Below, piece after piece: positions 47,776-56,738 of a stretch of 64,000 nucleotides of DNA (within the stretch, counting starts at the first letter, position 1; each line of letters starts with the position of its first letter). Where the stretch lies: assembly GCA_026004455.1 (NCBI GenBank), contig BPJE01000003.1, positions 1-64,000 on the forward strand. Direction: 5' to 3'. The translations under genes and the position numbers were made by a program. The notes under the pieces are model-generated. The model saw nothing but the letters and a program-made list of their open reading frames with translations, was not told the origin of the DNA and searched no databases. Source of the stretch: Patescibacteria group bacterium (GTDB taxonomy: Bacteria > Patescibacteriota > Microgenomatia > UBA1406 > GWC2-37-13).

Positions 47776-48130
47776 ATACCACACGATTTCTTTTAAACAT
47801 GCTTGGGACGGATTGATTTGGTCATTAAAAACTCAACCAAATTATCGAATCCATTTATTTTTATCTTTTTTATCAATAATTGGCGGTTTTTATTTTAAAA
47901 TTAGTTATTTTGAATTTTTATTAATTATTTTTTTAATTACGGTTGGATTGGTGGTTGAGACAATTAATACTGGTTTGGAGCAAACAACTGATGCAATTGA
48001 TAAAAAAATACGTGAGGATATTAAAATTGCCAAAGATGTTGCAGCAGCAGCTATGCTTATTTATGCAATTGGTTCCTCAATAATTGCTTTGATTATATTT
48101 ATTCCAAGAATTTTTAAATTATTTATATGA
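47768..48130 (+). CDS. dgkA: Diacylglycerol/undecaprenol kinase DgkA
   Basis: SFKHAWDGLIWSLKTQPNYRIHL, VETINTGLEQTTDAI, AKDVAAAAML. Confidence 0.94.
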   Translation: MVRYHTISFKHAWDGLIWSLKTQPNYRIHLFLSFLSIIGGFYFKISYFEFLLIIFLITVGLVVETINTGLEQTTDAIDKKIREDIKIAKDVAAAAMLIYAIGSSIIALIIFIPRIFKLFI

Positions 48131-49167
48131 CATCAGTATATTTATTTGCTTTAATTGTTTCCTTTATTTTTAATTTTTTTTTAATAATTCCTTTTATTAA
48201 TTATTTATATAAACTTAAATTTCAAAGAGTTGAACAAGGTTATAAAGATGTTTTAAATAAACCAACACCAATTTTTGAAAAATTTAACAAACATAAAACC
48301 GGTATACCAATTGGTGGTGGAATTTTAATATTGGCAACAACTACTTTAGTATTTTTTTTCTTTATTTTTATGTATTGGCTTTTTAAACAAAAAATTCTTA
48401 CCAATTATCCTTCAATTGCCTCCGAAATAAAAATTATTCTATTTACTTTTTTATCTTTTGGTTTTTTAGGATTATTTGATGATTTTCAAAAAATTTTTGG
48501 TTGGAAAAAAACTGGTTTTTTTGGTTTGAAGATGTCACAGAAGTTTTTAATTGAGTTTGTTTTATCAATTATTATTTCTTGGATGCTTTTTAATGAATTA
48601 AAAATCGATATTGTTAATATTCCTTTTTTTGGAGTTTTTGAATTAGGTTATTTTTATTTAATATTTGCTAGTTTTATTATTATTGCTTTTGCCAATGCAG
48701 TTAATATCACTGATGGTTTGGATGGTTTGGCTAGTGGAATTATGGCATTTTCATTAATTGGATTTTGGGTGGTGGCAAGATCAATCCTTGATGTCCCAAC
48801 TTCTCTTTTTATTGCTGCTTGGCTTGGTGGAATTTTAGCATTTTTATATTTTAATATTTATCCAGCAAGAATTATGCTTGGTGATACAGGAGCCTTGTCT
48901 TTTGGCGCTACTTTTGCGGTAATTGGTTTGATTTTAGGAAAAGCTTTTTCTTTACCAATTATTGGTGGAATTTTTGTTATTGAGGCAGCTTCTTCTTTAA
49001 TTCAGATTTTAGGAAAAAAATTTTTAAAGAAAAAAATATTTCCAGTTGCCCCTTTTCATCTTTATCTTCAATATAAAGGTTGGGAAGAGCCAAAAATCGT
49101 AATGCGACTTTGGCTTATCTCAATAATCCTAGTCTTCTTTGGTCTAATGATTGCGTTTATGAAATAA
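48127..49167 (+). CDS. mraY: Phospho-N-acetylmuramoyl-pentapeptide-transferase
   Basis: NKHKTGIPIGGGILI, FGFLGLFDDFQKIF, NAVNITDGLDGLASGIMAF, MLGDTGALSFGA. Confidence 0.95.
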   Translation: MTSVYLFALIVSFIFNFFLIIPFINYLYKLKFQRVEQGYKDVLNKPTPIFEKFNKHKTGIPIGGGILILATTTLVFFFFIFMYWLFKQKILTNYPSIASEIKIILFTFLSFGFLGLFDDFQKIFGWKKTGFFGLKMSQKFLIEFVLSIIISWMLFNELKIDIVNIPFFGVFELGYFYLIFASFIIIAFANAVNITDGLDGLASGIMAFSLIGFWVVARSILDVPTSLFIAAWLGGILAFLYFNIYPARIMLGDTGALSFGATFAVIGLILGKAFSLPIIGGIFVIEAASSLIQILGKKFLKKKIFPVAPFHLYLQYKGWEEPKIVMRLWLISIILVFFGLMIAFMK

Positions 49168-49200: not shown

Positions 49201-49229
49201 TTGACAAATAAAAAAATTTTTTATATATT
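49201..49229 (+). promoter_or_regulatory. Sigma70-type promoter TTGACA-N17-TATATT driving the scoutRNA candidate / cas12d
   Basis: TTGACA 49201-49206, TATATT 49224-49229; predicted start about 49235. Confidence 0.7.
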
Positions 49230-49234
49230 TAAAA

Positions 49235-49330
49235 TGGGTCCCTAACCCAAGCGCTCAGGTGGTTTTCCCCTTGAATATTTTATTCAAGGTTGCCTTTTGA
49301 CTTATTAGTCATACTGCCTGAGCGCATTTA
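49235..49330 (+). ncRNA. scoutRNA (type V-D short-complementarity RNA) candidate in the cas12d 5' UTR
   Basis: GTCCCTAACC (49238-49247) perfectly complementary to repeat GGTTAGGGAC; 9-bp closing stem GCGCTCAGG/CCTGAGCGC (49251-49259/49317-49325); inner hairpins CCTTGAATA/TATTCAAGG (49269-49277/49281-49289) and TGACT/AGTCA (49298-49302/49307-49311); GCCTTTT (49292-49298) complementary to repeat AAAAGGC. Confidence 0.75.
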
Positions 49331-49337
49331 TATAAAA

Positions 49338-52300
49338 ATGAAAGGTTATAAAATTCATATAAAAAGAATTGAAGAAACTTCTGGAGAGATTATCAGAACT
49401 ATTAAATATCCTCTTCAAAATATAAATAAAAATAATATAGAAATTGAAAATCAGTTATTTTCCAATCTCATTAATGATGATAAAAAAACAAGAGGAATAA
49501 GCAATATTATAGATTTTTATCAAGAAAATGAAAATTATAATCTTTTTGATTTTTGGATTGATTCTTTAAAAGCTGGAATTATTTTTCAGCCTACCTCAAA
49601 ATATTTAATTGATTTTGTAAAAAAAATAAGAAACGAAAAATCAATCGCTGATGAAATTTTTGAAAATTCAAGTGAAGAAATAAAAAAATATTTTAAAAAG
49701 AGAGAGTTTATAAAGAATATAATTATTTCTGATCCAAAAAGATCAAATTCTTCAAAAAATGGTTTTTTTAATACTCTTTTTGAATCTATAAAAGATGAAT
49801 ACAAAGATTTAAAAAATAAGCGAATAGTTGATCAGAATTTAGAAAAAATTATCAAAACTATAATTGACTCTTTTTATGATGATAAAGATAAATTGTTATT
49901 AGAATCTGGAGAAAAACAAAATAATTTTTGGAAGAAACAATTTAATATAGACAAAGATTTACTTAGTAGTAAAGAAAAAACAAAAATAGGTGAATTAACA
50001 AATTTTATTTTACCTGAATTGATAAATATTAAAAATAATCAAGTTACTTTAGAAGAATTAATTAATCAAAGAATTAAATTAGCTGAATCATATTTACAAA
50101 AAATAAATTTAAATCTAAATAATAAATATGAAATAACAAAATCGTTATTGGGACTAGAAAATAATTTTAATGCTTTATCTAATTATTTAAATATTTTTTT
50201 TAATTTTTTAATTGAAGAAAAAATTGATGATATTATTGATGCTTATTTAAAAATAACAACTTTAAATGAACAAGAGAAAGAGCTTGTGAAAGAATCTTTA
50301 TTTTACTTATCAAAAAAAACAAAAAATTTAGGAAAACCTAAGTTTATTAATTCAAATTGGCAAGATTATAGAAGTATTTTTGGTGGTAAAATTCAAAGTT
50401 GGTATTCTAATTATGTAAACAGATTAACAAAATCAAAAGAAAATTATAATTTATTTATAAAAACTTTAGAAAATACTATTGATTATCTAAACAAAAATAT
50501 AAATTTAAATATTGATGAAAATAAGGAAAAGATAGAAATTGATATTTTAAATAGGATAAATTATCTTAAAGATATTTGTTTAAAAAATAAAGATATATTT
50601 GAAAATGTAGAAAAATTTCAAATATTTTCTGATTATTTAGCTGAAATAAAAACGTTAGTAAATCTTTATTTTCAAAAATATTTGAAAAAAAATGACGATG
50701 ATAAGATAAATCAAAATAAAATATTTGGTTTTTTATTCAAAAAAATAGAAAAACCAATTAATTTTTATGGGTATTCTAAAAAACAATTTTTAAGCAAAAT
50801 AATTAAAACTACTTCTTTAAAAATAAAAGATGGATACATTATTATAAAAAAACTATTAAATGAAATAAATAATTTAAAAGATAAAGATTACAAAAAAGCA
50901 ATTGAAGAGATATTAGAGATATTTTTTGAAAAAATATCAAGAAAAACAATAACTTCGGCTTTTTTCTTTAATGAATATAAAAAAATTTTTAAAAAATATA
51001 TAGACGAAAAAGAGGATTTAAAAAGGATTTTTAATCATTCTGATTATTATGCTTTTTATAAAAATCCAAGAGAAAAGCAGAATAAGAAAATTATTCAAAT
51101 AAAAAAAGATATAAAAATAAAAGATTTATTATATGATTTTTACAATTTAATCAATAGTATCAACTATGAATATCTTATTAAGAATCCTTTGTTATTCTTA
51201 GAATACCTTGAAACAGCAAAATCATTAATATCTATTTTTATTCAAAATAATGTCAATAATAAATTTAAAATAAACAAAAATGAGTTTTTAAACTATGAAA
51301 AAATTAATCATTTTATTGAGTTACAAAAAAAAGAGGATTTTACCAATGATGAATTTAATAAAATTATAAATCAATATTTTTTTTCAGAATTAAAAGGAGC
51401 TTTAAATATCTATTCAAAAAAAGTTGAAGTTAATAAATACAATCTTCAAATAATAAAAAGCCAAGAAAAATTTCCCATTATTTTAGAATTTCCTCAACAA
51501 TTAACTATTGATGATTTAATTAATAAAAATAAAGAATTAATTAATCTTTCTCATAAATATTTTGTTGTCTTTGATCAAAATTTTTCTTTTAAGAAAATCA
51601 AAAATAATAATGAAAAAACCAACCATTTCTTTATAAATAAAAATGAAATAATTCCTATAAAAATTATTAATTTAAAAAAAGAATTAATTTATTTTATTAA
51701 TTCTTCTTTTTACCAAACTCAATTTTTAGATAGATTAATTTATAAGCCAAAAAATTGGGAGAATATTAAGATTACAATATCTGAACCTTCTTTTATATTA
51801 GAGATAAAGAATTGTATAAACTTTGATATTTTTAATGAAAAAATTGATTTTAAGGAAAAAAATAGACAGTTATTTATATCAGTTCCTTTTAATATCACTT
51901 CAAAACAAAATATATCAACAAATAAAATGGAGAATAAAAAAAATCTTTATATGGGTATTGATGCGGGTGAGTATGGTGTAGCTTATTGTTTGGTAGATTT
52001 TTCAGAAAAAAAAACCAAAAATTTTAGAAACAGATTATATAAGAAGCAAAAATATAAGAAAAATCAAAGATTATTATCATAAAATTCAAGAAAGGGCAAA
52101 AAAAGGTATATTTATTCAATCTTCATCTATATTACAAGAAATTAGAGAAAACTCAATCAATGAGATAAGGAACAAAATACATAATTTATATGTTAAATAT
52201 AAATCTCCAATTATTTATGAATATTCAATCAGTAATTTTGAAACAGGTTCAGGAAGAGTCACTAAAATATATGATTCTATTAAAAAATCTGATGTTGTGC

Positions 52301-52950
52301 CAGATAATGAAGCTGATAAAACTATTATCAAACATATTTGGGGAAAAGAATACATAAGAGTAGGAAAAAATTTATCAGCTTATGCCTCAAGTTTTACTTG
52401 TGTTAAGTGTGGAAGAAGTATTTATTCTATTTTAGAAAATTTTGAAAATCATAAAATGAAAATTTTAAAAAGAATTCAGAATGATGGTATAAAAAATATT
52501 TTAGAAATAGAAACAAATTTAGGTATTATCTTTGGTTATTCAAATGATAGTAAGTTTAAAGAAGATTATCTATTTAATAATTCTAAAGAAGATAAAAGTA
52601 ATTTTATAAAAATAGTAAAAAATTTTACTAGACCTCCATTAGAAAAAAGCGAAGTTTTGCTAACTTTTAAAAAATTAAATAGAAAAACTTTAAAAAATAT
52701 CAAGAAAAAAAGAGGTAATTCTGCTATATTTATCTGCCCATTTAAAGATTGTCAACATGTATTTGATGCTGATTTACAAGCTGCTTTTATAATGGCTTTA
52801 AGGGGTTTTATAAAAGATATCATCCCAAATAATAAAGATATAAATATTTTTGAAGAAACTTTAGAATATTTATCTGAAAATAAACCTGTTAATTTTGAAT
52901 TTTTACAAAATCAAGATTTATTTTCTTTGCCTCAGTCCAAAAATCAGTAA
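49338..52950 (+). CDS. cas12d: Type V-D CRISPR effector Cas12d (CasY)-like, split into two ORFs by a +1 frameshift in A9 (52006-52014)
   Basis: RuvC-I MGIDAGEYGVAYCLVDF; RuvC-II IIYEYSISNFETGSGRVTKIYDSIKKSDVVPDNEADK...WGK; Zn finger CVKCG...CPFKDC; RuvC-III DADLQAAFIMALRG; TRPP and RGNSAIFICPF resemble recalled CasY C-terminal motifs; array and cas1 adjacent; one A removed gives about 1203 aa. Confidence 0.88.
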
Positions 52951-53905
52951 TGCCTGCTGTATGACCATAAAGTTTAAACCCAGAATTTATCGGTCTTCCT
53001 CCTCTTGGTTTATCTATTTGAGGCACTATAAATCTTCTTGTTTTTTTATTTAAATACATCCTTAAAGATAAAACTATTCCATGTAAAAGTTCTTGAAAAG
53101 TAGCTATTTGTCTTGTTGAGTGGACATAGACTTGTTTATTTAGTAATTCTTTAATTTTTTCTATTGCTATTGGCAATAAATTATTATTATTTTTTATACT
53201 TTGATTTTCTTTGTATAAATCAAAAATTACTTTATCAAAATAACCCCTATAAGGCTCAATTAGATCATATACTAAAGATGGATAATCTGTTGGATTGTGT
53301 AAAAATCCATGATATGGGCTTAAATTATGATATAAAATCCATCTTAAAATAATACTACTTACAAATTTTGATATTGCGTTTAAAGTTTTTTGGATTTCAT
53401 TATTTTCTCTTCTTTTTTGATCTAAACCAAGGCTTAAAAAATATTCTTTCCAATATCGTTTTGCGTGCCAAGCTTCGATATTTTTCATTTTTTGAATATC
53501 TGTAATTTTATAAAGTTGATCTTTTGCTGAATTTATAAGCCATTCCATACTTTTAAATTTTGCTAAAATAAGTTTTTTTGCTATATAACTTCTTTTTTTA
53601 TCATTTTCTCTAAATTTTATTTGTTTTGTTAATAAATCATCTGAATCAGATGTAAGACTAGGAGTGATTATTGATGCTCGAGCTAAATTACGTCTATGAA
53701 AAATAATTGGTATTTTATAAAAGGCACATTTATCTATAAAATCTGCAGGCAAATCACAACTATCTCCATAAATCATTATTGAATGTATATCGACCCAATC
53801 TATCTGAACCTCTCCGCCTTTATATATAAATTTTACATTTTTTGGTTTTATATCTATACTATTTAGATAAGGAAGCCATAAATATTTTTTTCTTTTATAG
53901 GACAT
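52889..53905 (-). CDS. cas1: CRISPR-associated integrase Cas1
   Basis: MIYGDSCDLPADFIDKCAFYKIPIIFHRR N-terminal Cas1 pattern; HNLSPYHGFLHNPTDYPSLVYDLIEPYRGYFDKVIFDL catalytic-domain motif; adjacent to array. Confidence 0.93.
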   Translation of the reverse strand: MSYKRKKYLWLPYLNSIDIKPKNVKFIYKGGEVQIDWVDIHSIMIYGDSCDLPADFIDKCAFYKIPIIFHRRNLARASIITPSLTSDSDDLLTKQIKFRENDKKRSYIAKKLILAKFKSMEWLINSAKDQLYKITDIQKMKNIEAWHAKRYWKEYFLSLGLDQKRRENNEIQKTLNAISKFVSSIILRWILYHNLSPYHGFLHNPTDYPSLVYDLIEPYRGYFDKVIFDLYKENQSIKNNNNLLPIAIEKIKELLNKQVYVHSTRQIATFQELLHGIVLSLRMYLNKKTRRFIVPQIDKPRGGRPINSGFKLYGHTAGITDFWTEAKKINLDFVKIQN

Positions 53906-54027: not shown

Positions 54028-55306
54028 CACCGAAGGTTAGGGACAAAAAGGCAATTGAAAACTCCGACATCACCGAAGGTTAGGGACAAAAAGGCAAGAC
54101 TTTCTCTCTGTCCCACCGAAGGTTAGGGACAAAAAGGCAAACTTTCAAGCGGGGATCACCGAAGGTTAGGGACAAAAAGGCTATCTCTGACCACATTAAC
54201 ACCGAAGGTTAGGGACAAAAAGGCAGCAGTGGTTGAGGTTGTCACCGAAGGTTAGGGACAAAAAGGCAGAGTGATTGGGAGGCTTCACCGAAGGTTAGGG
54301 ACAAAAAGGCAACAAATAAGAGAATTTTACACCGAAGGTTAGGGACAAAAAGGCTTTGAAACAAATGGTATGGCACCGAAGGTTAGGGACAAAAAGGCTC
54401 CGTCGTAATGAACAACGCACCGAAGGTTAGGGACAAAAAGGCGCGTGGTCTTATGATGGCGCACCGAAGGTTAGGGACAAAAAGGCATACCATACTTCAC
54501 ACCATCACCGAAGGTTAGGGACAAAAAGGCTTCTTTTTATTAACAGTTCACCGAAGGTTAGGGACAAAAAGGCTCTTTCGCATCAATTGCATCACCGAAG
54601 GTTAGGGACAAAAAGGCTTGGAACCTCCTGTTTTCCACCGAAGGTTAGGGACAAAAAGGCCAATATAAAAAACTTTCCCACCGAAGGTTAGGGACAAAAA
54701 GGCAACAGGAGGAAGTAGGAGCACCGAAGGTTAGGGACAAAAAGGCAAAGCGTTGCTCCTCTTTCACCGAAGGTTAGGGACAAAAAGGCTAATAGTCAAT
54801 AATCCAACACCGAAGGTTAGGGACAAAAAGGCCTTCTTTTGGTCTGCCTTCCACCGAAGGTTAGGGACAAAAAGGCACAAAACAAAAAAAGCATCACCGA
54901 AGGTTAGGGACAAAAAGGCTTTTATAACCTAAATCTTCACCGAAGGTTAGGGACAAAAAGGCAAAAACGAAACCCGCCAGCACCGAAGGTTAGGGACAAA
55001 AAGGCAAAAGCGGTGTTTTTGCCACACCGAAGGTTAGGGACAAAAAGGCAAAAGAGCTGATGGTTGGCACCGAAGGTTAGGGACAAAAAGGCTATCCCCC
55101 CTTTTTTGACCACCGAAGGTTAGGGACAAAAAGGCTTATAAACATTATCAGGTAACACCGAAGGTTAGGGACAAAAAGGCTGGCACAAAATCCAACAGGC
55201 ACCGAAGGTTAGGGACAAAAAGGCCAAGTCAGGCCAAACGGCCACCGAAGGTTAGGGACAAAAAGGCTTAACAAAAATTTTAGAACACCGAAGGTTAGGG
55301 ACAAAA
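54028..55306 (+). CRISPR. CRISPR array: 30 repeats of 25 nt (last one degenerate), 29 spacers of 18-20 nt
   Basis: CACCGAAGGTTAGGGACAAAAAGGC; hand-counted spacers: 19 x 18 nt, 9 x 19 nt, 1 x 20 nt; last repeat (55286) loses its 3' AGGC. Confidence 0.99.
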
Positions 55307-55324
55307 TAATTTTTTATTTTTAAC

Positions 55325-55365
55325 AAGGACAAAACCTTTTTAAAAAAGTTCTGTCCTTTTTTTTT
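55325..55365 (+). terminator. Terminator downstream of the array (AAGGACAAAACCTTTTTAAAAAAGTTCTGTCCTT + T tract)
   Basis: Imperfect inverted repeat followed by poly-T; same family as 1471 and 62305. Confidence 0.7.
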
Positions 55366-55397
55366 AAATGTTAGATGTTAGATGATATAATATCTTC

Positions 55398-56738
55398 ATG
55401 GGTTTAATTGATGATTTAAAAGCAAAATATCAAGGAAAAAAAGTTTTAGTAGTTGGTTTGGGATTGCAGGGTGGAGGAGTTGGAGTAGCGAAGTTTTTTG
55501 CAGAATTAGGAGCAAAAGTGACAGTCACTGATAAAAAAAATGAGACCCAATTAGCAGATTCAATTGAAAAATTAAAAAAATACTCCATTAATTATTCTTT
55601 AGGAGGTCATCGGACTGAAGACTTTTTAAATAGCGATATTATTTTTAAAGGACCGGGTGTTCCTTGGTCGCTAAAAGAGATCGTTGAGGCAGAAAAAAAA
55701 GGTATTCCTATTGAGATGGAGATGGCATTTGTAGCGAGATGTTTTCCTGGAAAAATTATAGGTATTACTGGAACAAGGGGCAAGTCAACAACTACCAATT
55801 TAATTTATAAACTTTTAAAAGATAATGGTTTTGAGACATTGTTAGGAGGTGGATTGCCAGGGATATCTAATTTAGAATATTTAAAAAAAGCAAATAATAA
55901 TACTTGGTTGGTGGCAGAGTTATCATCTTGGTCATTATCAGGTTTTCATAAGAAAAAAATTAGCCCTCATATTGCAGTTTTTACAAATTTTTATCCGGAT
56001 CATTTGAATTATTATCAAAATATGGATGATTATTTATTTGATAAAAAAGCGATTTTTATGTATCAAAAAGCTAGTGATTATTTAGTAATTAACAAAAAAT
56101 TATTAAATTTTTTAGATAAAAATTCAATTAAATCAAAAGTTTTAACTTTTAGTAGCAATGATGTTCAAGAAAATTTTGAAAATTTAACTGGCGATCATAA
56201 TAAAGAAAATATTGCTGCTGTTTTAAAGGTGGTTGAAATTTTGAATATTGAAAAAACAAAAGCGATTAATACAATTTCCAATTTTCAATCTTTACCTTTT
56301 AGACAACAAATTATTGCTAAAAAACAAAATGTAATTTTTGTTAACGATACTACCTCAACAACACCAACAGCCACAATTTACGCTATAAAAAGATTTTCTG
56401 ATAAGCCAATGATTTTGATTTTAGGCGGTAATAGCAAAAATCTTCCTTTTGAAAAATTAATTGAAGAATTAAATAATCCTCAAATAAAAAAAATATTTTT
56501 ATTAGCTGGTAGTTTTACTGATGAAATTTTGCCTTTTTTAGAAGAAAAATATCAAGAAAAAATATCAAAAAAAATTTATGACAATCTTCAATTAGCGATA
56601 AAAGAGGCTTTTTTAGAAGCTAAAAAAATAAATAATGATGTTTATTTAGTTTTTTCTCCAGGAGCAACTTCATTTGCGATGTTTAACAATGAGTTTCATC
56701 GCGGTGAAGAATTTAATAAAATAGTAAACAAATTATAA
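55398..56738 (+). CDS. murD: UDP-N-acetylmuramoylalanine--D-glutamate ligase
   Basis: GITGTRGKSTTTNLIYKLL, ELSSWSLSGF, TNFYPDHLNYY, NDTTSTTPTATIYAI. Confidence 0.95.
   Translation: MGLIDDLKAKYQGKKVLVVGLGLQGGGVGVAKFFAELGAKVTVTDKKNETQLADSIEKLKKYSINYSLGGHRTEDFLNSDIIFKGPGVPWSLKEIVEAEKKGIPIEMEMAFVARCFPGKIIGITGTRGKSTTTNLIYKLLKDNGFETLLGGGLPGISNLEYLKKANNNTWLVAELSSWSLSGFHKKKISPHIAVFTNFYPDHLNYYQNMDDYLFDKKAIFMYQKASDYLVINKKLLNFLDKNSIKSKVLTFSSNDVQENFENLTGDHNKENIAAVLKVVEILNIEKTKAINTISNFQSLPFRQQIIAKKQNVIFVNDTTSTTPTATIYAIKRFSDKPMILILGGNSKNLPFEKLIEELNNPQIKKIFLLAGSFTDEILPFLEEKYQEKISKKIYDNLQLAIKEAFLEAKKINNDVYLVFSPGATSFAMFNNEFHRGEEFNKIVNKL

What the first reader, a model, noticed from the sequence alone, without database searches (positions are those of the whole stretch)
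49235..49330. Candidate scoutRNA with a 10-nt perfect anti-repeat, in the 5' UTR of cas12d
Seen: TTGACA-N17-TATATT predicts a start at about 49235. The RNA opens with GTCCCTAACC, the exact reverse complement of repeat GGTTAGGGAC. A 9-bp stem (GCGCTCAGG/CCTGAGCGC) then encloses two hairpins, with unpaired GCCTTTT between them, complementary to the repeat 3' end AAAAGGC. Established: Cas12c/Cas12d use short-complementarity scoutRNAs rather than classical tracrRNAs. Here one segment is 10 nt and the two segments are not collinear with the repeat, implying a different pairing geometry. The closing stem ends 12 nt before the effector ATG with no evident terminator, so the guide cofactor may also be the mRNA leader.
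Basis: partly seen in the sequence, partly recalled or inferred. Interest (0 to 1): 0.88.

Follow-up and report, generated by a model that had tools for sequence, protein, structure and literature searches.

The report
Cas12d guide-partner RNA with long anti-repeat
Just in front of the CRISPR nuclease gene cas12d in this small uncultured bacterium lies a folded helper RNA whose two repeat-matching segments are preserved across related bacteria even where the repeat sequence has changed, which marks it as a real partner of the guide RNA that grips it over about ten letters rather than the three to five described for this kind of RNA.

Summary
Window 49235-49325 encodes a stable RNA (z -7.5) directly upstream of a Cas12d/CasY gene, with a 10-nt perfect anti-repeat (AR1, 49238-49247) and a GCCTTTT dock (49292-49298). 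A homologous RNA lies upstream of cas12d in 10 further loci. All 11 carry 9-12 nt of perfect anti-repeat in the same register (repeat -19/-17 to -9/-8). The anti-repeat follows the repeat when the repeat changes: 9 of 12 pairs show changes on both sides, and a sister lineage keeps 10-12 nt with a largely different sequence. The closing stem covaries and the dock is nearly invariant. These effectors form one supported clade whose repeats lack a stable internal hairpin; in the other Cas12d loci with a known repeat, six of seven repeats fold on themselves there and the long anti-repeat is mostly absent. It is therefore the Cas12d scoutRNA, in a form that pairs extensively. The 'non-collinear geometry' is not new: Cas12c2's tracrRNA pairs in the same order at overlapping positions. 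Co-transcription as the cas12d mRNA leader is likely, but transcript, processing and activity are untested. This window's cas12d copy has a frameshift in an A9 run. New variant of a known kind.

The parts
49201..49229 (+). sigma-70-like promoter TTGACA-N17-TATATT, 5 nt before the RNA 5' end
   Evidence: TATAAT-like hexamer 4-6 nt before the RNA in 10 of 11 homologous loci, strong two-hexamer match in 7
49235..49325 (+). scoutRNA/tracrRNA-like RNA, conserved in the leader of cas12d
49235..49249 (+). 5' hairpin TGGGU-CCCUA-ACCCA that holds the anti-repeat in the free RNA (present in 8 of 8 group A loci, absent in group B)
49238..49247 (+). AR1: 10-nt anti-repeat GTCCCTAACC, complementary to repeat positions -18..-9
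49251..49263 (+). closing stem P1, 5' strand (GCGCTCAGG plus extension)
   Evidence: compensatory changes in 6 of 7 counted pairs
49269..49289 (+). hairpin P2 inside P1
49292..49298 (+). dock GCCTTTT, complementary to repeat 3' end AAAAGGC (-7..-1); GCCTT invariant in the clade
49298..49311 (+). hairpin P3, variable insert between dock and P1 3' strand
49313..49325 (+). closing stem P1, 3' strand
49338..52950 (+). cas12d/casY, frameshifted (open 49338-52082; continues in another frame to 52950)
   Evidence: NCBIfam NF033951 625.7 and 328.5 bits, cut-off 250; PADLOC Cas12d; one-base indel in A9 run 52006-52014
52889..53905 (-). cas1, convergent with cas12d
   Evidence: Pfam PF01867, PADLOC
54028..55306 (+). 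CRISPR array, repeat CACCGAAGGTTAGGGACAAAAAGGC: 29 exact copies to 55267, then a truncated last repeat from 55286; spacers 18-20 nt

Best explanation
The RNA is the guide-RNA cofactor (scoutRNA, functionally a tracrRNA) of this type V-D system. It is read from the promoter at 49201-49229 and probably runs on into the cas12d mRNA. Its 5' segment forms a 9-12 bp helix with the middle of the crRNA repeat (R:AR-1). Its internal dock GCCUU pairs with the repeat 3' end AAGGC (R:AR-2). The closing stem P1 lies between the two helices, as stem 1 does between PK1 and PK2 in Cas12c2. In the free RNA of this lineage AR1 is folded into a small hairpin whose loop can start pairing with the repeat, and the hairpin then opens in favour of the longer duplex. 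Shown here: sequence, predicted fold, conservation, covariation of P1 and of R:AR-1 with the repeat, and clade distribution. Inferred: transcription, release from the mRNA, assembly with Cas12d and need for cleavage.
For: Effector is Cas12d by curated model. A homologous RNA lies upstream of cas12d in L001, L002, L003, L004, L005, L012, L021, L022, L026 and L029. AR1 of 9-12 nt is present in 11 of 11 in the same repeat register, with arrays of four of these genomes found on other contigs. Covariation: AR1 x repeat has 9 of 12 pairs with both sides changed, P1 is 100% paired with 6 of 7 pairs compensatory, the dock is nearly invariant; score 0.556 against 0.155 +/- 0.027 shuffled and 0.06-0.14 when slid. 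Predicted interaction is strong with the own repeat and weak to near zero between the two main repeat types. Tree: the loci with AR1 form one 100/100 clade. The Cas12c2 structure has the same order and overlapping positions (PMC9522604). The P1-TTYC-hairpin-GCCTT descriptor has one hit in the 64-kb window, here.
Against: No RNA or protein experiment could be run. The AR1 covariation rests on six distinct repeat/anti-repeat combinations, and the largest change (group A to group B) is one lineage split. One predicted cross-pairing (L005 RNA with the window repeat, -13.5) is no weaker than L005's own (-10.7), so specificity is not absolute. This copy of cas12d is frameshifted, so the system may be inactive here, unless the indel is an assembly error or is bypassed by slippage. 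In group B and L005 the dock is partly self-paired in the predicted fold.
Confidence: 0.87

Rival explanations
1. The RNA is mainly a cis-acting leader of cas12d: free or unprocessed repeats bind AR1 in the mRNA and change translation or stability of cas12d, with the guide role limited to the dock.
For: In all 11 clade loci the RNA lies just before the cas12d start codon on the same strand; 12 nt separate P1 from the ATG in the window, leaving no room for another promoter; AR1 is at the very 5' end, and in group A is held in a hairpin with an exposed loop.
Against: P1, P2 and dock match the known scoutRNA/Cas12c2 guide scaffold in order and position; AR1 abuts P1 as PK1 abuts stem 1 in Cas12c2. 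A regulatory role alone does not predict the dock. Both roles may hold at once.
Confidence: 0.1
2. AR1 is conserved only as a 5' hairpin; its match to the repeat is incidental or a fossil of an inverted repeat copy.
For: The hairpin is kept in 8 of 8 group A loci with one two-sided change. At repeat position -18 the hairpin pair is kept in L002 and L005 where the repeat pair is lost. A 10-nt match somewhere in the window is not rare.
Against: Group B has no hairpin there but keeps a 10-12 nt match to a largely different repeat. A fossil would not follow the repeat through both-sided changes at nine positions.
Confidence: 0.02
3. The locus is a decaying remnant: cas12d is broken and the RNA persists only by recent inheritance.
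For: One-base indel in an A9 run in cas12d; a fragmented CasY with self-targeting spacers is known from Roizmanbacteria (PMC6509639).
Against: The rest of the reading frame is intact on both sides, cas1 is intact and the array is uniform; no spacer matches the rest of the window closely (best 3 mismatches); relatives have intact genes with the same RNA. It concerns this copy only, not the nature of the RNA.
Confidence: 0.15

Closest known systems
Type V-D (Cas12d/CasY) scoutRNA (Harrington et al. 2020, Mol Cell 79:416; paper not held, known here through PMC9522604, PMC7889808, PMC11127173)
   Same: Encoded next to cas12d; internal segment complementary to the repeat 3' end; stem-hairpin-dock layout found in the other Cas12d loci too.
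   Different: Adds a 9-12 nt anti-repeat at the 5' end, against the 3-5 nt docks cited for scoutRNAs. Whether the original paper shows such a member could not be checked.
Cas12c2 tracrRNA/scoutRNA (Kurihara et al. 2022, PMC9522604; PDB 7V93, 7V94)
   Same: 5' segment pairs with mid-repeat (PK1), next comes stem 1, linker, stem 2, linker, then a segment pairing with repeat -4..-1 (PK2), then stem 1'. Same non-collinear order; both first helices end at repeat -8 or -9.
   Different: First helix is 9-12 bp and reaches -17..-19, not 4 bp (-11..-8). In Cas12c2, repeat -18..-12 probably pairs with a 3' tracrRNA segment (R:AR-3); here AR1 covers most of that stretch and no third segment was found upstream of the ATG.
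Scout RNAs of the other Cas12d lineages in this study (L010, L025, L028, L031, L034, L037, L038)
   Same: P1-UUYC-hairpin-GCCUU-P1' core, next to cas12d.
   Different: No significant mid-repeat anti-repeat in most; where the repeat is known it usually folds on itself (-5.7 to -8.1 kcal/mol; L034 is the exception) and the array runs up to the RNA.
Classical tracrRNA (Cas9, Cas12b, Cas12e)
   Same: Extensive anti-repeat pairing with the crRNA repeat.
   Different: Two separate non-collinear segments on either side of a closing-stem strand, not one continuous anti-repeat.

Membership tests
Type V-D scoutRNA | Encoded at a locus with a Cas12d effector and CRISPR array | tested here: met
   NF033951 far above cut-off; array 54028-55306
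Type V-D scoutRNA | Segment complementary to the repeat end next to the spacer (dock/anchor) | tested here: met
   GCCTT x AAGGC in 9 of 9 distinct rows
Type V-D scoutRNA | Conserved stem/hairpin fold around the dock | tested here: met
   P1 100% paired with 6 of 7 pairs compensatory; folds
Type V-D scoutRNA | Only short (3-5 nt) complementarity to the repeat, as the name says | tested here: not met
   A further 9-12 nt perfect segment in 11 of 11 clade loci. The same objection was raised for Cas12c2 (PMC9522604), so this concerns the label rather than homology
Type V-D scoutRNA | Required for Cas12d-catalysed DNA cleavage | not testable with these tools
   needs biochemistry
Cas12c2-type tracrRNA scaffold | Order PK1 - stem 1 - stem 2 - PK2 - stem 1' | tested here: met
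   AR1 49238-49247, P1, P2, dock 49292-49298, P1'; compared with PMC9522604
Cas12c2-type tracrRNA scaffold | Third repeat-pairing segment 3' of stem 1 (R:AR-3, stem 4) | tested here: not met
   Only AR1 and dock reach 6 nt in the 220 nt before the ATG; only 12 nt lie between P1 and the ATG. Coding sequence was searched only for matches of 9 nt or more
Classical tracrRNA | One long collinear anti-repeat processed with crRNA by RNase III | tested here: inconclusive
   Two non-collinear segments; processing not testable
Any Rfam family | Match above gathering score on the + strand | tested here: not met
   Only sub-threshold matches on the other strand

The most novel reading that the evidence does not exclude
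Within Cas12d the central repeat strand is held in one of two exchangeable ways: in cis by the repeat's own 5' arm, or, in one clade including this window, in trans by a caged 10-nt 5' segment of an RNA that is at the same time the 5' leader of the effector mRNA, so that guide assembly and effector expression are coupled through one molecule.
Probability: 0.3. Interest if true: 0.72.

Novelty: new variant of a known kind. Interest (0 to 1): 0.56.

Why it matters
No Cas12d structure was found among solved structures by sequence (only Cas12c1 and Cas12c2), and scoutRNAs are described as needing only 3-5 nt of pairing. A covariation-backed 10-nt helix in one clade, mostly absent where the repeat folds on itself, gives a concrete, testable secondary structure for the Cas12d guide complex, suggests how to fuse the two RNAs into a single guide for these enzymes, and shows that scoutRNA and tracrRNA are ends of one continuum.

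Tried and rejected
Rfam scan of the locus: nothing above threshold. Viral contig collection: no Cas12d relatives. A long mid-repeat anti-repeat in the other Cas12d lineages: not general; L025 has 9 nt (20 of 1000 shuffles) and L028 a different 12-nt match to repeat -12..-1. A covariance model was not built, because MAFFT misaligned the 3' strand of the closing stem in L003/L004; pairs were counted on ungapped composite alignments instead. Those composites were assembled by hand in the register being tested; slid and shuffled controls accompany them. Structure prediction of Cas12d was not run, as it would not place RNA. Harrington et al. 2020 is not held.

Full report
Observation. The promoter is TTGACA-N17-TATATT. 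The RNA 49235-49325 folds stably: with the 14 nt that follow, -41.9 kcal/mol against -19.3 +/- 3.0 for shuffles. Its parts are a 5' hairpin holding GTCCCTAACC (49238-49247), a closing stem P1, a hairpin P2, the open dock GCCTTTT (49292-49298), a third hairpin and the other strand of P1, ending 12 nt before ATG 49338. GTCCCTAACC occurs nowhere else in the window outside the array. A 10-nt anti-repeat somewhere in 64 kb is not remarkable by itself. In the 220-nt leader it is reached by 4 of 1000 shuffles.

Setting. The gene behind it is cas12d (NCBIfam NF033951, 625.7 and 328.5 bits for its two halves, cut-off 250; PADLOC), followed by a convergent cas1 and an array of 25-nt repeats with 18-20 nt spacers. 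The cas12d frame is broken by a one-base indel in an A9 run at 52006-52014 relative to the intact relative in L002.

Relatives. Cas12d searches of whole genomes and of the GTDB contigs gave further loci. In ten of them a homologous RNA sits immediately upstream of cas12d: L001 and L002 (same genus), L003 and L004 (same family), L021, L026 and L005 (same class), and L012, L022 and L029 (a Dojkabacteria lineage). I call the first seven plus the window group A and the last three group B. A TATAAT-like hexamer lies 4-6 nt before the RNA in ten of the eleven, and a strong two-hexamer promoter match in seven.

The anti-repeat follows the repeat. Where the array was on another contig the repeat was found by pattern search in the same genome. 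Repeat core and RNA segment: GGTTAGGGAC with GTCCCTAACC (window, L001); AGTTAGGAACT with AGTTCCTAACT (L003, L004, L021, L026); GTTAGGAACC with GGTTCCTAAC (L005); ATTTAGGTGGTG with CACCACCTAAAT (L012, L022); TTAGGTGGTG with CACCACCTAA (L029); L002 keeps 9 nt. The register is the same throughout, from -19..-17 to -9..-8 of the repeat. Of twelve possible pairs nine have changes on both sides; the closing stem is 100% paired with six of seven pairs compensatory; the dock is invariant at five positions. The covariation score is 0.556 against 0.155 +/- 0.027 in shuffles and 0.06-0.14 when partners are slid. These counts were made on composite rows that I assembled in the register under test. Much of the change separates groups A and B, so the number of independent events is small. 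Within group A, -11 (G-C to A-U), -18 and -8 change independently of that split.

Hairpin or repeat pairing? In group A the anti-repeat also folds into a 5' hairpin, kept in 8 of 8 with one two-sided change. Group B has no such hairpin but keeps 10-12 nt of complementarity, so repeat pairing is the shared feature and the hairpin is a group A feature. Predicted opening is favourable: hairpin -4.9, duplex -19.3 kcal/mol for the window. Interaction with the own repeat is -10.7 to -16.0, and weak to near zero between groups A and B.

Clade distribution. In a protein tree the eleven AR1-bearing effectors form one 100/100 clade and the other lineages fall outside (some outside branches are long). 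Repeats of the clade have little internal fold (0 to -3.3 kcal/mol). Of the seven other Cas12d lineages with a known repeat, six have a self-folding repeat (-5.7 to -8.1) using part of the same strand; L034 (-1.2) is the exception. The other lineages share the P1-UUYC-hairpin-GCCUU core (read from the sequences; partly recovered by the descriptor; not located in L033). The long mid-repeat segment is mostly missing there; L025 has a 9-nt match and L028 a different one. I infer an exchange between a cis hairpin and a trans helix; the direction is not resolved.

Comparison with known systems. In the Cas12c2 structure the tracrRNA 5' segment pairs with repeat -11..-8 (PK1), stem 1 follows, then stem 2, then a segment pairing with -4..-1 (PK2), then the other strand of stem 1; a 3' segment probably pairs with -18..-12 (PMC9522604). 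The order and the spacer-side ends match this RNA, so the non-collinear arrangement is not a new geometry. New here is one continuous 9-12 nt helix at the first position, with no third segment found. The authors of that structure argued that Cas12c2's RNA should be called a tracrRNA; the same argument applies to this Cas12d clade. No Cas12d structure was found by sequence in the PDB copy. The original scoutRNA paper was not readable, so I cannot say whether a member of this clade was shown there; the held papers found with the searches used do not describe it in the passages read.

Mechanism. Most likely: transcription from 49201-49229, RNA released from or shared with the cas12d message, R:AR-1 and R:AR-2 formed with each crRNA around P1, and binding by Cas12d as in Cas12c2. 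Because only 12 nt separate P1 from the ATG, a transcript starting at 49235 and reaching cas12d would carry both, and cleavage after P1 would leave a nearly leaderless mRNA. These last steps are inference.

Noticed in passing
window 52006-52014: cas12d is frameshifted by a one-base indel in an A9 run; a fragmented CasY with an A-run deletion is reported for Roizmanbacteria (PMC6509639). Could be an assembly error, a real lesion, or a slippage site.
   Followed up: partly
window 48127-49167 and 55398-56738: The CRISPR-Cas locus lies between a MraY-like glycosyltransferase gene (PF00953) and a MurD-like ligase gene (PF21799/PF08245), inside what looks like a mur/fts cluster.
   Followed up: partly
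L010 (4526-4610 region), L025, L037: In other Cas12d lineages the array runs up to the scoutRNA; in L010 the last repeat is fused to the closing stem, so array, scoutRNA and cas12d could be one transcript.
   Followed up: partly
L039:4830, L028:2164: A 13-nt (L039, Cas12c-like locus in a cyanobacterial bin) and a 12-nt (L028) perfect collinear anti-repeat including the dock motif lies after the array end.
   Followed up: no
L040:4300-4365: A Cas12c-like locus in a Propionibacteriaceae bin has the same stem-UUCC-hairpin-GCCUU core between array and effector.
   Followed up: no
window 55324-55366: Hairpin AAGGACA...TGTCCTT followed by T9 after the truncated last repeat, likely the array's terminator.
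   Followed up: no
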